Assembly (NCBI RefSeq): GCF_900114605.1
Contig: NZ_FOTP01000003.1
Coordinates: forward strand, 434,001 to 498,000
Reading direction: 5' to 3'
Length of the DNA stretch: 64,000 nt
Origin: Bradyrhizobium sp. NFR13
Lineage (GTDB): Bacteria > Pseudomonadota > Alphaproteobacteria > Rhizobiales > Xanthobacteraceae
Part shown: positions 41,093 through 48,056 of the stretch, piece after piece
Numbering within the stretch: the stretch's first letter is position 1
How the letters are laid out: each line of letters opens with the position of its first letter
Position numbers and translations under genes: made by a program
The notes under the pieces: generated by a model
What the model was told of the DNA's origin: nothing
The model's input: only the letters and a program-made list of their open reading frames with translations
The model's database searches: none

Positions 41093-42094
41093 TTATCCCG
41101 ATCGCGATTGCTCGCGAAACTGCCGCGGCGTCACACCGGAAATTCGGCGGAAGGCGCGGCTGAAATGTGCCGGATCCGTGTAACCGGACGAAAATGCGAT
41201 ATCGATAATCTTGGAATTGCTGTCACGCAAAAGCTTGCTCGCATTCTCATATCTGACGGTGTCGAGCAGATCAGAATAGCTCAGGCCGACATGCGCGAGC
41301 TTGCGCTGAAAGCTGCGTGTGCTGACGCCCGCCATTTCAGCGACTTCAGCAAGAGCCGGAATTCCGTCGTCCAGATAGGACGGCAGCATCAGTTTCAGCA
41401 GCTCAACGATGTCGTAGCCGGAAGGGCCGTCCTCGTGAGCTTGCGGTGCTGGGCTCACGTCTTTCCGATGGTTGGCGAGACTGAGATACGAGATCGGCAC
41501 GTCGATCCACGCCGCATGCTGGCCTGACAGGAACCGCACATTGGGCCACAAGGATTGCGTTGCGGACCGCGGCGTGTAGCGCGCTTCAAAGGCGATCGTC
41601 GCCGGCATCCAGTCCGGCCCCGCGAACTGCCGGACGATGTGTATGGAGAAAATGTTCTGGATCCATTGCAGGTGCTCCATATGCAGGAGCCCGTTTGTCC
41701 CGGCGAGCGTGGTGCAAATCCGCGCGTGATCGTCATCGTGCTCGATCCACATGCTCAGGATTGTATCCTCCCGCGGCGCCCATGTGCAGGCATGCCGCAG
41801 CGCCACGAGCAGTGTCGGAGAGTGAGCGATCAGGGCCCGCGTTTTCTCGCGCATATGGGAGAAATGCAGCCGCTGGCTGGCCAGGAAGCCGAATTCTTCA
41901 ATACCCTGGCTTCTGCCGGCGGTTTCCATGAAGCGGATGGCCGGCATCAGCGGGACATAGAGATCGCTCTTGTCGACCAGAGACGACGGAAGCCGAAACT
42001 TGGTCAGAAGCGAACTCGTCGGCGCACCGGTCTCATCGAGAATCCCGACGAAGGGCAGAAGAAACTGGCAGCGCGTCAAAGGGATGTTGGCCAT
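41093..42094 (-). CDS. AraC-family transcriptional regulator (arabinose-binding-type ligand domain)
   Basis: A 333-residue regulator. The N-terminal ligand-binding domain (about 15-195) has the layout seen in AraC-type proteins such as OruR/VirS (LRHACTWAPREDTILSMWIEHDDD, FEARYTPRS). The C-terminal HTH (about 235-330) reads GIPALAEVAEMAGVSTRSFQRKLAHVGLSYSDLL, then IIDIAFSSGYTDPAHFSRAFRRISGVTPRQFRE, both helices of the AraC fold being intact. It is divergent from the formylglycine-generating enzyme gene across 366 bases that hold the shared 20-base element. A decayed copy of its 5' part lies at 47690-47868. It is the natural candidate for control of the surrounding envelope genes. Confidence 0.9.
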   Translation of the reverse strand: MANIPLTRCQFLLPFVGILDETGAPTSSLLTKFRLPSSLVDKSDLYVPLMPAIRFMETAGRSQGIEEFGFLASQRLHFSHMREKTRALIAHSPTLLVALRHACTWAPREDTILSMWIEHDDDHARICTTLAGTNGLLHMEHLQWIQNIFSIHIVRQFAGPDWMPATIAFEARYTPRSATQSLWPNVRFLSGQHAAWIDVPISYLSLANHRKDVSPAPQAHEDGPSGYDIVELLKLMLPSYLDDGIPALAEVAEMAGVSTRSFQRKLAHVGLSYSDLLDTVRYENASKLLRDSNSKIIDIAFSSGYTDPAHFSRAFRRISGVTPRQFREQSRSG

Positions 42095-42250
42095 TGGGTC
42101 TCGTCGCGATCATCCGTAGGTACTTTGCATCAGCCACAATTTCAATCGAATCGCTACTGGCGAGCCCGGAGAATGTCACCGTTCTCTTGCCGGCACCTGT
42201 CGGCCTCGAATTGCAGCGGTCGCCGTGTCGTGTGCATCGCGGCAAGAATT

Positions 42251-42440
42251 CATGACCGGCAGCGATTGGCGCGAAGTGGCAAGACGACGGGCCTTCGTCT
42301 GCACGAAATGACCCGGACAGGGTTCGCCTGTCGATCGGAAGGCAACCGGGCCGGGCGCAGGCCCCGGCTTCCCCAAGATTCCGCCCACGGAACGTCGGCA
42401 CCGGCCCGGCTTTGCTTCCACCTTCCCAATAAATCCGACA
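42251..42440. repeat. Duplicated regulatory segment, copy A (with 20-base element)
   Basis: About 190 bases in the divergent region between the AraC-type and sulfatase-maturation genes are repeated at 47869-48056 with roughly seven differences (about 96 percent identity by eye). The segment starts CATGACCGG and ends AATCCGAC. It includes the element TTGGCGCGAAGTGGCAAGAC at 42266-42285 and a GC-rich stretch. The rest of the 42095-42460 region holds no gene. Confidence 0.9.
42266..42285. promoter_or_regulatory. Shared 20-base element, site A
   Basis: TTGGCGCGAAGTGGCAAGAC, placed centrally between the AraC-type gene (171 bases away) and the FGE gene (175 bases away). The TTGGC and TGGCAAG halves resemble the spaced half-sites bound by AraC proteins. 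The same element recurs at 47884-47903 and, with one change, at 50812-50831. Confidence 0.6.
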
Positions 42441-42460
42441 AGTAAACTGGAACCACCATA

Positions 42461-43453
42461 TTGAGAACGCTGACCTGCGCCGAAACGGCTCAGACGGATT
42501 TGCGATCGGAGCGTGTACGAGACGGCATGGTCTTCGTGAGTGCCGGAACGTTCTGGATGGGTTCGGATCGGCACTACCCCGAAGAGAGACCGGCTCACCG
42601 CGTCAGTGTCGATGGGTTCTTCATTGACGAGATTCCCGTCACCAATACTCAGTTTGCCGAGTTCGTGGCTGCAACCGGATATCGCACGTTTGCCGAATCC
42701 GTGCCCGATCCAAAAGACTATCCCGGCATACTGCCGGAGATGCTGTATGCGGGCTCGCTGGTTTTTCGCGAGCCGACCGGGCGTGTCGGTCTTGATGACT
42801 GGTCGCAGTGGTGGTCGTTTCTCGAGGGTGCCAACTGGCGTCGTCCCTATGGTCCGCTTAGCAGCATCGAAGGACGAGATGATCATCCCGTCGTCCACGT
42901 CACCCACCAGGACGCGCTGGCCTATGCACGATGGAAGGGCAAGGATCTTCCTACAGAAGCCGAGTGGGAGTTCGCCGCCAGAGGAGGCCTCGAACAGGCC
43001 GAATTCGCATGGGGATCGGAGCTGATCCCCGATGGCCGGCATATGGCCAATACCTGGCAAGGATCGTTTCCGACAGTCAATCATAACCAGGACGGATACT
43101 CCCGCACGTCGCCTGTGAAAGCCTATCCGCCCAACGGATACGGTCTCTACGACATGATCGGAAACGTTTGGGAGTGGACGTCCGACTGGTACTCCGCGCA
43201 GCACGAAGCAGACACGACGAAAGCCTGCTGCGTGCCCAGCAATCCTCGCGGCGGGCATGAGTCAGCCAGCTACGATCCATGTCTTCCCGAAATAAAAATC
43301 CCGCGGAAGGTCCTCAAAGGCGGCTCGCATCTCTGCGCTCCTAATTATTGCCGCCGCTATCGGCCTGCAGCTCGCCATCCAGAAGCAATCGATACTTCGA
43401 CAAGTCATGTCGGATTCAGATGCGTTGTTCGAAACGGAGAATCGAATGAATAA
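42461..43453 (+). CDS. Formylglycine-generating enzyme (sulfatase-modifying factor)
   Basis: An FGE-sulfatase-domain protein of up to 330 residues. It oxidises a Cys in the CxPxR motif of sulfatases to formylglycine before export. The domain starts at GMVFVSAGTFWMGSDRHYPEERP, continues through LPTEAEWEFAARGG and NVWEWTSDWY, and ends with GGSHLCAPNYCRRYRPAARH, in which Cys292 and Cys297 are the two catalytic, copper-binding cysteines. No signal peptide is seen, consistent with cytoplasmic action. The start is TTG at 42461, or possibly ATG at 42527. It overlaps the sulfatase gene by eight bases, so enzyme and substrate are made together. Confidence 0.93.
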   Translation: MRTLTCAETAQTDLRSERVRDGMVFVSAGTFWMGSDRHYPEERPAHRVSVDGFFIDEIPVTNTQFAEFVAATGYRTFAESVPDPKDYPGILPEMLYAGSLVFREPTGRVGLDDWSQWWSFLEGANWRRPYGPLSSIEGRDDHPVVHVTHQDALAYARWKGKDLPTEAEWEFAARGGLEQAEFAWGSELIPDGRHMANTWQGSFPTVNHNQDGYSRTSPVKAYPPNGYGLYDMIGNVWEWTSDWYSAQHEADTTKACCVPSNPRGGHESASYDPCLPEIKIPRKVLKGGSHLCAPNYCRRYRPAARHPEAIDTSTSHVGFRCVVRNGESNE

Positions 43454-47508: not shown

Positions 47509-47604
47509 TCGCACTCTGACCGAGAGCTATTTCAGCAGGCCGTTGTTGTCGATCCACGTCGAACAGTGACTGCTGCGGTGCTCTCAACGCTACTAAAAAT
47601 GCTG

Positions 47605-47637
47605 GAGCGCGTTCCGATGGGAGCGCGCTCTATTTTT
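47605..47637 (+). terminator. Intrinsic terminator of the FGE-sulfatase unit
   Basis: GAGCGCG (47605-47611) pairs with CGCGCTC (47624-47630), extended inward by TTCC/GGGA, and TATTTTT follows. It lies 97 bases after the last gene of the sulfatase unit and before the decayed regulator copy, so it closes this transcription unit. Confidence 0.8.
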
Positions 47638-47689
47638 CTGACGCGTTCTGCCGGAACGAAAGCGTTTTCGCTGGAATGGCCCCAGTCAA

Positions 47690-47868
47690 TGCCAGCACAA
47701 CGAGCAATGTCGGGGAGTGACCGATCAGGCCCGCGTTTTCTTGCGCATATGGGAGAAATGCAGCCGTTGGCTGGCCGGGAAGCCGAATTACTCAATGCCC
47801 TGGCTTCTCCGCGCGGTTTCCATGAAGCGGATTGCCGGCATCAGCGAGACGTAGAGATCGCTAAATGA
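47690..47868 (-). pseudogene. Decayed fragment of the AraC-type regulator gene
   Basis: About 175 bases match the 5' coding part of the regulator at 41093-42094 (its bases about 41800-41970) at roughly 88-90 percent identity. On the minus strand SDLYVSLMPAIRFMETARRSQGIE is readable, followed by a stop; the frame is then damaged. About 280 bases that join start codon and promoter in the intact copy are missing here and replaced by a few bases. No regulator can be made from it. It shows that the regulator plus promoter was once duplicated. Confidence 0.85.
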
Positions 47869-48056
47869 CATGACCGGTCGCGATTGGCGCGAAGTGGCAA
47901 GACGGCGGGCCTTCGTCTGCACGAGATGACCCGGACAGGGTTCGCCTGTCGATCGGAAGGCAACCGGGCCGGGCGCAGGCCCCGGCTCCCCCAAGATTCC
48001 GCCCACGGAACGTCGGCACCGGCCCGGCTTTGCTTCCACCTCCCCAATGAATCCGA
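47869..48056. repeat. Duplicated regulatory segment, copy B (with 20-base element)
   Basis: Second copy of the 42251-42440 segment, about 96 percent identical, ending just before the outer-membrane protein gene. The 20-base element TTGGCGCGAAGTGGCAAGAC is unchanged at 47884-47903, 213 bases before the ATG at 48117. The adjoining regulator fragment has diverged more than this non-coding part. Confidence 0.9.

What the first reader, a model, noticed from the sequence alone, without database searches (positions are those of the whole stretch)
41800..48056. Duplicated regulator-plus-promoter in which the promoter outlived the gene
The 5' part of the AraC-type gene and its upstream region occur twice, at 41800-42440 and 47690-48056. 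In the second copy the coding part is broken and has drifted to about 88-90 percent identity, while the non-coding 190 bases remain about 96 percent identical. Non-coding DNA conserved better than the attached coding fragment suggests that the segment is under selection as a control region, or kept alike by gene conversion.
Basis: partly seen in the sequence, partly recalled or inferred. Interest (0 to 1): 0.7.

Follow-up and report, generated by a model that had tools for sequence, protein, structure and literature searches.

The report
Orphaned promoter beside a regulator fossil
A soil bacterium carries two copies of the switch region of one regulator gene, one at each end of an inserted sulfatase gene cluster; in the second copy the regulator gene has rotted away but the switch still faces its old target genes, which suggests one way bacteria can bring new genes under an existing switch.

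Summary
Confirmed. The 5' part of an AraC-type gene plus its control region occurs twice: A 41798-42439, B 47693-48057. B lacks 282 bp of A, including araC codons 1-42. The araC part is 90% identical, frameshifted and stopped; the 189-bp non-coding part differs at 7 sites (96.3%).

In several related genera the arrangement is araC | control region | outer-membrane gene-PAP2 operon. In the window (genus Tardiphaga) and two congeners a formylglycine-enzyme/sulfatase cluster lies between, flanked by A and B. B is thus the operon's upstream control region beside a dead regulator stub. Both copies hold a 20-bp operator-like box; a third box (50812) precedes a DUF1254 gene. These are the genome's only perfect hits. 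Across relatives the box tracks the regulator (12 of 13 genomes with it, 8 of 384 without) and points at the downstream gene (47 of 57 boxes, 0 opposite, 10 undetermined).

The box is under selection, but 96% over the whole segment is best explained by A-to-B gene conversion: the two halves of B favour different trees, and the leader half, 97% alike within the genome, is 59-85% alike in three of four congeners. A parallel with efflux cargo exists in another Xanthobacteraceae genome. Regulation is inferred.

The parts
41093..42094 (-). intact AraC-family regulator gene (333 aa), divergent from the cassette
   Evidence: Pfam HTH_18 and HTH_AraC above cut-off, Arabinose_bd 34.6 bits against cut-off 27.6; orthologues in 5 of 18 Tardiphaga genomes, own included
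41798..41968 (.). copy A, araC-coding part of the repeat (codons 43-99)
41969..42250 (.). stretch of A missing from B: araC codons 1-42 and 156 bp upstream of araC
   Evidence: the same junction in B of L009 and L013
42251..42439 (+). copy A control region, upstream of the FGE-sulfatase cluster
42266..42285 (+). operator-like box A, TTGGCGCGAAGTGGCAAGAC
42461..43453 (+). formylglycine-generating-enzyme-like gene (start at TTG 42461 or ATG 42528)
   Evidence: Pfam PF03781, 276.7 bits
43446..45830 (+). sulfatase
   Evidence: Pfam PF00884, 179.1 bits for the ORF 43407-45830; start 43446 by inspection
45957..46304 (+). HdeA/HdeB-family small periplasmic protein
   Evidence: Pfam PF06411
46367..47188 (+). 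DUF2092 predicted periplasmic protein
   Evidence: Pfam PF09865, 246.9 bits
47185..47508 (+). small glycine-rich protein, last gene of the cluster
   Evidence: ORF, no Pfam match; conserved in L009 and L013
47603..47632 (+). intrinsic-terminator-like hairpin (13 pairs, T tail) after the cluster
   Evidence: consensus scan, (2 such sites found in 47500-48150, 0.4 expected)
47693..47862 (-). copy B, dead araC stub (codons 43-99; the local alignment reaches codon 101)
47869..48057 (+). copy B control region, upstream of the outer-membrane gene-PAP2 operon
47884..47903 (+). operator-like box B
48117..48899 (+). predicted outer-membrane beta-barrel gene (the label, and 'porin' in call outputs, is mine by inspection)
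   Evidence: ORF, no Pfam or NCBIfam match; next to araC in Labrys, Ancylobacter and other loci
48999..49847 (+). PAP2-superfamily phosphatase
   Evidence: Pfam PF01569; below the NCBIfam PhoC cut-off
49867..50772 (+). ORF of unknown family (start within the longer ORF 49681-50772 chosen by inspection)
   Evidence: ORF; no NCBIfam match, Pfam not run; conserved in the five Tardiphaga loci
50812..50831 (+). operator-like box C, upstream of DUF1254; no araC stub detected in the window
50969..52009 (+). DUF1254/DUF1214 protein gene
   Evidence: Pfam PF06863 and PF06742

Best explanation
An AraC-type regulator gene and a divergent outer-membrane gene-PAP2 operon shared one control region. A cluster encoding a formylglycine-generating enzyme, a sulfatase and small periplasmic proteins came to lie between them by an event that duplicated the 5' end of araC and the control region. 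Copy A kept the intact araC and now faces the sulfatase cluster. Copy B stayed in front of the old operon. Its araC piece, redundant, lost the start region by a 282-bp deletion and decayed, while its operator box was kept by selection. Later a stretch of A's control region overwrote that of B by gene conversion, which gives the 96% identity. Shown: the repeat, the shared junction, the decay, the conserved box. Supported by tests of unequal strength: the discordant histories of the two halves. Inferred: that the cluster-free order is the ancestral one (it is the commoner), that AraC binds the three boxes and switches the three units together, and that B is an active promoter.
For: Without the cluster, araC | box | outer-membrane gene and/or PAP2 is found in Labrys, Ancylobacter, Methylobacterium, Kaistia, some Bosea and Tardiphaga P9-11 loci. 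The window, T. robiniae (L009) and PARB1 (L013) have the cluster between copies A and B. All three B copies share the junction GATCGCT|AAATG. Box: exactly 3 perfect hits in 6.2 Mb; at up to 1 mismatch present in exactly the 5 of 18 Tardiphaga genomes that have the regulator (Fisher p=1.2e-4); in 12 of 13 regulator-bearing and 8 of 384 other genomes of the order sample (p=6e-17; neither p allows for relatedness). 47 of 57 boxes have a gene of the panel starting within 500 bp on the same strand, 0 on the opposite strand, 10 have none. In unconverted A-B pairs the box has 0 of 22 mismatches against 30/165 (L009) and 16/67 (L013) in the rest. Dead stub: changes at codon positions 1/2/3 are 4/3/4 plus a frameshift, while 6 functional copies have 13 of 49 changes outside position 3 (Fisher p=0.031). 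Conversion: clade winA+winB+L009A has 96% bootstrap for the control region and winB+L009B is rejected (AU p=0.005); for the stub winA+winB has AU p=0.012. States shared only by winA, winB and L009A fall between 42363 and 42420; winB lacks states shared by L009B and L013B at 42252 and 42312-42322. The leader half is 97% alike between A and B but 59, 83, 85 and 96% alike to copies A of L011, L013, L010 and L009. A terminator-like hairpin lies between cluster and B, so B's operon probably needs its own promoter.
Against: No expression or binding data. The consensus scan found no sigma-70-type promoter in A or B. The 7/189 against 17/172 contrast is only p=0.02. For the stub, KH and SH tests do not reject winA+winB (0.105, 0.123), only AU does. 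At 42260-42261 winB carries states of L009B, L013B and L010A, so the left edge of the conversion tract is unclear. The trees rest on 171-203 columns and 7 sequences; L013B was left out of the control-region tree because it is truncated, and the AU tests compared only 4 and 3 topologies that I wrote. L009B and L013B are 95% alike over 1.3 kb, more than their araC (92%) or rpoB (92.9%), so horizontal exchange has blurred orthology. Box-only genomes exist (8 of 384). L016 has the regulator but no box upstream of it. In the window pair itself the box is no more conserved than the rest (0/22 against 8/168, p=0.6), as expected after conversion but no support for selection.
Confidence: 0.82

Rival explanations
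1. Purifying selection alone: the whole 189-bp segment is a long control region under constraint in both copies, with no gene conversion.
For: The box and a second motif around ATGCACGAAATG are conserved over 55 sites; in unconverted pairs (L009, L013) the box has 0 of 22 mismatches.
Against: The leader half (42346-42439) is 91/94 alike between A and B but 55/94 to 80/94 alike to L011, L013 and L010. The pairs L009A-L009B and L013A-L013B are only 0.84 and 0.82 alike. AU, KH and SH reject B-B orthology for the window's control region.
Confidence: 0.08
2. Recent duplication: copy B arose only in the window's lineage, and the stub merely evolves faster because it is a pseudogene.
For: The control region of B is closest to A of the window and of T. 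robiniae; pseudogenes do evolve faster; KH and SH do not reject winA+winB for the stub.
Against: The same deletion junction, without microhomology that I can see, occurs in B of L009 and L013. The stub has the state shared with L010, L011, L013, L009B and L013B where winA and L009A differ (GACGTAG against GACATAG). AU rejects winA+winB for the stub, p=0.012.
Confidence: 0.07
3. The segment is a mobile repeat or structured RNA element rather than a promoter.
For: It occurs twice and flanks an inserted cluster.
Against: Only two copies in the genome, no Rfam match, folding energies no better than shuffles (z from -0.32 to 0.81). Fixed orientation relative to the downstream gene in many genera.
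Confidence: 0.02
4. Each copy of the box was acquired separately from similar regulators, and the araC stub reflects an old second regulator gene rather than a duplication of this one.
For: Related genomes carry several AraC paralogues of this family, e.g. two full-length matches in tandem in L039, and one full-length and one cut off by the locus end in L032.
Against: The stub is 86-93% identical to araC of the Tardiphaga and Afipia loci compared, within the range of orthologues; the paralogues in L032 and L039 are at most 68% identical in protein.
Confidence: 0.05

Closest known systems
Reiterated nifH/nif promoters of rhizobia (recalled, not read here)
   Same: A promoter together with a 5' piece of the adjacent gene is duplicated and drives other operons.
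   Different: There, as I recall, the copied coding piece is of a structural gene and the activator is elsewhere. Here the copied piece is of the divergent regulator gene itself, so every stub names the regulator. Searches gave no paper I could use to check the recall.
Divergent AraC-family regulator-target pairs with a shared intergenic control region (general knowledge)
   Same: Regulator gene on one strand, target operon on the other, box between them oriented towards the target.
   Different: Here three transcription units carry the box, and cargo clusters have entered between regulator and target in at least two lineages.
QhpR (NCBIfam NF049968), the best-scoring named regulator model
   Same: AraC-type; match over residues 49-327.
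   Different: 117.5 bits against a cut-off of 250; not a member.
Gene conversion between duplicated bacterial sequences, e.g. rRNA operons (PMC8022953, abstract start seen in the listing)
   Same: Homogenisation of paralogous copies by recombination.
   Different: Here the tract is a non-coding control region of about 110-190 bp, bounded by a deletion on one side and by the end of homology on the other.

Membership tests
AraC/XylS-family regulator | C-terminal double helix-turn-helix domain | tested here: met
   PF12833 75.5 bits (cut-off 33.6) and PF00165 52.1 bits (26.6)
AraC/XylS-family regulator | binding to direct-repeat operator sites next to the target promoter | not testable with these tools
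   the box contains TGGC-N6-TGGC and tracks the gene, but binding was not measured
QhpR equivalog | score above the NCBIfam cut-off of 250 bits | tested here: not met
   117.5 bits
Segmental duplication with promoter retention | two copies of gene end plus control region in direct orientation | tested here: met
Segmental duplication with promoter retention | second coding copy non-functional | tested here: met
   start codon missing, frameshift, stop, loss of codon-position bias
Segmental duplication with promoter retention | retained copy is an active promoter | not testable with these tools
   inferred from box, position and terminator-like hairpin
Gene conversion | paralogues within a genome closer than orthologues between genomes | tested here: met
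   winA-winB 0.958 against winB-L009B 0.866; AU, KH and SH reject winB+L009B
Gene conversion | adjacent segments of the same copy with discordant trees | tested here: inconclusive
   stub: AU rejects winA+winB (0.012), KH and SH do not (0.105, 0.123); shared-state table points the same way
Transposable or integrase-borne element | terminal repeats or recombinase gene | tested here: not met
   no inverted repeat pair of 30 nt or more in 36000-54000 (a 32-bp self-palindrome at 49777-49808 shows); no recombinase domain in the nine proteins scanned
Structured cis-regulatory RNA | match to an Rfam family or unusually stable fold | tested here: not met

The most novel reading that the evidence does not exclude
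The regulator's 5' end plus control region acts as an integrase-free docking site. Cargo clusters that carry such a segment enter between regulator and target by ordinary homologous recombination, are at once under the resident regulator, and can leave as circles by recombination between the direct repeats. The stub left behind is the trace of the homology arm, and it loses its start codon early because a truncated N-terminal AraC fragment could interfere with the intact dimer. Supporting pattern: the same place holds a sulfatase cluster in three Tardiphaga loci and an OmpA-MarC-HlyD-AcrB cluster in L024, each followed by an araC stub plus box in front of the old target. The stubs found (B; C; L024) all lack araC codon 1 in the alignable part.
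Probability: 0.22. Interest if true: 0.7.

Novelty: new variant of a known kind. Interest (0 to 1): 0.5.

Why it matters
It gives a readable example of how a local regulon can grow: copying a regulator's own end with its operator brings a new operon under control in one step and leaves a recognisable stub. Because the same trace appears at copies B and C in Tardiphaga and, with other cargo, in L024, 'box plus reversed stub of the regulator' could be searched for genome-wide to find recently recruited operons. It also warns that high identity of a duplicated non-coding region can come from conversion and is not by itself proof of selection.

Tried and rejected
Structured RNA or riboswitch: no Rfam match in the window at gathering thresholds, one chance hit at E=4.1 elsewhere in the stretch; folds of both strands of both copies no better than shuffles.

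Repeat family: only the two copies in the whole genome.

sigma-70 promoter scan: nothing in A or B, so no -35/-10 is claimed.

araC stubs at other boxes: of 33 boxes tested, eight adjoin the intact araC; seven others have a clear stub (winB, L009B, L013B, L010C, L011C, L013C, L024 porin-side); L105-DUF1254 is marginal (28 against a null maximum of 26; 31 against 27 with its own araC) and not counted; the remaining 17 show none: winC, L009C, two of L104, one of L105, two of L106, two of L111, and one each of L107, L108, L109, L016, L020, L028, L031, L047 (the araC-side boxes of L104 and L105 lie 480 and 303 bp from araC, beyond the 300 bp tested). Of 52 boxes, partly the same genomes, 11 adjoin an intact araC, one has a stub (L130, the same contig as L024), one is a chance-level 23-bp match (L084), 39 have none. 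So stubs are detectable only in some cases; the other extra boxes could have arisen otherwise or be too old.

A first box-against-flank count used ungapped flanks; in A-B and A-C pairs the left flank crosses the deletion junction and the right flank is shifted by gaps, so those flank counts are inflated. I replaced it by the aligned count, where L104 gives no contrast (2/22 against 19/118, p=0.53) and L105 a weak one (1/22 against 28/118, p=0.046).

Species tree for gain or loss of the cluster: rpoB gave usable sequence for window, G003, G008, G005, G004 and G001; the two G013 fragments align poorly (76-80%) and make the printed tree unusable, and G639 gave no match. I use only pairwise rpoB identities without G013.

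Literature: searches brought no description of this locus or box that I could see in the listings; two returned nothing. For the papers listed I saw listings and abstract starts only; of PMC6117902 I saw four passages, which do not bear on the matter.

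Full report
OBSERVATION. The window carries an AraC-family gene on the minus strand (41093-42094; Pfam HTH_18, HTH_AraC and Arabinose_bd above cut-off) and, divergent from it, a formylglycine-generating-enzyme-like gene, a sulfatase, an HdeA-like protein, a DUF2092 protein and a small glycine-rich protein. The 5' part of araC plus non-coding DNA recurs 5.6-5.9 kb downstream. The non-coding part 42251-42439 and 47869-48057 differs at 7 of 189 sites; the araC part 41798-41968 and 47693-47862 is 90% identical with a one-base gap; 282 bases of A are missing from B. 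No other stretch of the window resembles the 189-mer (best 77/189), and the genome search lists no further copy. The contrast in divergence is significant but modest (Fisher p=0.021, or 0.048 with a stricter count).

WHAT SURROUNDS IT IN RELATIVES. A scan with the AraC protein gave 47 loci. In Labrys (L014, L015), Ancylobacter (L019, L025), Methylobacterium (L022), L042 and Tardiphaga P9-11 (L011), araC is followed by the outer-membrane gene and PAP2; in Kaistia (L018, L023) and some Bosea loci by PAP2; in L012 and L021 by DUF1254; in L010 by another HdeA-family gene and then the outer-membrane gene. Among the 19 loci and the window, the sulfatase cluster sits between araC and this operon in the window, T. 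robiniae (L009) and PARB1 (L013). L032 has FGE, sulfatase, HdeA and DUF2092 genes in another order between two AraC-type genes. In L009 and L013 a second control-region copy follows the cluster too, with only 24-25 bp of araC left. The junction between stub and control region is the same in all three, so B is most simply one old event. No outer-membrane-gene match was found in L009 and L013, where PAP2 follows B. That the cluster-free order is ancestral is inferred from its wider distribution; L010 and L011 could also have lost a cluster.

THE OPERATOR-LIKE BOX. Upstream regions of araC from many genera share TTGGCGC(G/A)AA(A/G)TGGCAAGAC, with a weaker motif about 25 bp further on (the 55 sites were picked because they hold the box). 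The most distant AraC relatives have a related but different sequence there (best match 7-9 mismatches of 22), and L016 has none upstream of araC. In the window's genome a pattern search with up to 3 mismatches found three perfect matches, in A, in B, and at 50812 upstream of the DUF1254 gene, and two 3-mismatch hits elsewhere; the reversed control pattern had 4 hits at that looseness. In the genus, 5 of 18 genomes (own included) have the box at up to 1 mismatch, and they are the 5 of 18 with the regulator. In the order sample of 397, 13 genomes have the regulator at E<=1e-100 and 12 of these have the box, against 8 of the 384 without; the reversed control rings in 3 genomes by my count of the table. 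In the family sample 31 of 391 have an exact match and I see no control hit. In 38 loci with 57 boxes (up to 2 mismatches), a gene of the panel starts within 500 bp on the same strand in 47, on the opposite strand in 0, and none is found for 10. Two pairs of these loci are the same contig by their length (L015/L108, L023/L114) and L014/L107 are nearly alike; none was removed. Loci with distant AraC relatives and the box-only loci L111-L113, L118, L119 were not in this count. In Labrys L108 the DUF1254 gene is inverted and its box is inverted with it. This is the pattern of an operator or promoter, not of a neutral repeat.

WHY THE NON-CODING PART IS SO ALIKE. Two causes can be separated. First, selection on the box: in the A-B pairs of L009 and L013 the 22-bp box has no mismatch against 30/165 and 16/67 elsewhere (p=0.028 and 0.009), and between species winA against L011A and L013A show 1/22 and 0/22 against 47/165 and 25/167. 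Second, gene conversion. Within T. robiniae and PARB1 the A and B control regions are only 0.84 and 0.82 alike, against 0.958 in the window. The window's B is closer to the A copies of the window and T. robiniae (0.958, 0.947) than to B of T. robiniae (0.866). The clade winA+winB+L009A has 96% bootstrap, and grouping the two B copies is rejected (AU p=0.005, KH 0.019, SH 0.025). For the araC stub the grouping of window A with window B is rejected by AU (p=0.012) but not by KH or SH (0.105, 0.123). Columns between 42363 and 42420 carry states shared only by winA, winB and L009A; L009B and L013B share states at 42252 and 42312-42322 that winB lacks. The leader half, 42346-42439, is 97% alike between A and B but 59%, 83% and 85% alike to copies A of L011, L013 and L010, and 96% to L009. 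So an old stub is joined to a young control region, most simply overwritten from A. The left edge is unclear, since at 42260-42261 winB has the state of the B copies and L010A.

THE STUB. Copy B keeps codons 43-99 or so of araC, with a frameshift and a stop. Its changes fall 4/3/4 on codon positions 1/2/3; those of six functional copies fall 13 of 49 outside position 3 (Fisher p=0.031). A hairpin with a T tail at 47603-47632 follows the sulfatase cluster (a consensus scan), so the next operon probably depends on B.

IT HAPPENED MORE THAN ONCE. Copy C, in front of DUF1254, has an araC stub (codons 73/74-109) within 7-10 bp of the box in three Tardiphaga loci (L010, L011, L013) but none detected in the window or L009. 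In L024, a Xanthobacteraceae metagenome-assembled genome, araC and its box are followed by OmpA, MarC, HlyD and AcrB-type genes and then by an araC stub (codons 27-54; 84 bp at 87%) plus control region (216 bp at 74%) in front of an outer-membrane gene remnant and PAP2. This is the same architecture with other cargo. All these stubs lack araC codon 1 in the part that aligns. Most other extra boxes show no stub.

MOBILITY. Only 5 of 18 Tardiphaga genomes carry the regulator. G004, 97.3% to the window in rpoB, lacks it, whereas G005 at 93.2% has it. L011, at 96.6% in rpoB, has an araC 91% identical to the window's; L013, at 93.2%, has one 93% identical. The segment from the extra outer-membrane-type gene through B is 95% alike between L009 and L013 over 1.3 kb, while their araC genes are 92% and their rpoB genes 92.9% alike. 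The locus is thus probably exchanged between species, and direct repeats around the cluster would allow loss by recombination. That the repeats serve as docking homology is my most novel reading and is not shown.

MECHANISM, SHOWN AND INFERRED. Shown: duplication, common junction, decay of the stub, conserved box with fixed orientation, co-occurrence with the regulator. Supported, with tests of unequal strength: discordant histories of stub and control region. Inferred: AraC binds the three boxes; the sulfatase cluster, the outer-membrane-PAP2 operon and DUF1254 form one regulon; B is active. The inducer is unknown. Nothing here is a test of expression.

KNOWN OR NEW. Promoter duplication and conversion are known processes. 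Rhizobial nif promoter reiterations are the nearest case I recall, without a source read here. A regulator's own end carried with its operator, recurrently and with decay of the regulator piece, I did not find in the listings of nine searches of the paper library, which holds open-licence papers only. I rate it a new variant of a known kind.

Noticed in passing
window 42440-42478; L010: The first codons of the FGE-like ORF resemble the leader and start of a different HdeA-family gene that follows araC in L010, as if the cluster had been fused onto that gene's start.
   Followed up: partly
L009 and L013, between the small glycine-rich gene and copy B: An extra outer-membrane-type gene (about 300 aa; read in L009, the stretch is 95% alike in L013) sits at the end of the cluster in both congeners but not in the window, where the longer araC stub stands instead.
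   Followed up: partly
window 48999-49847: The window's PAP2 gene is only 83-85% identical in DNA to those of four congeners, which are 91-93% alike among themselves, while the window's araC is 91-96% alike to theirs: a likely recombination patch.
   Followed up: no
window 50969-52009; L010, L011, L012, L013: DUF1254 falls in two classes: window and T. robiniae (95%) against L010, L011, L013 and an Afipia MAG (93-95% among themselves, 84-86% to the first), which suggests transfer between genera.
   Followed up: no
L039; L032: Two full-length araC-type matches in tandem in Afipia massiliensis, and in an Afipia MAG one full-length and one cut off by the locus end, on either side of a DUF2092-HdeA-FGE-sulfatase block: possible undecayed forms of the same arrangement.
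   Followed up: no
window 49777-49808: A 32-bp imperfect palindrome near the end of the PAP2 gene (self-match on the minus strand, 94%).
   Followed up: no
window 2987-3023 and 9770-9806: A 37-bp inverted repeat, 89% identical, 6.8 kb apart.
   Followed up: no
L028 8796-9623: In Bosea an ORF of 275 aa that looks like an outer-membrane protein stands between the araC-side box and the second box before the outer-membrane gene, another case of cargo at this place, without a detectable araC stub.
   Followed up: partly
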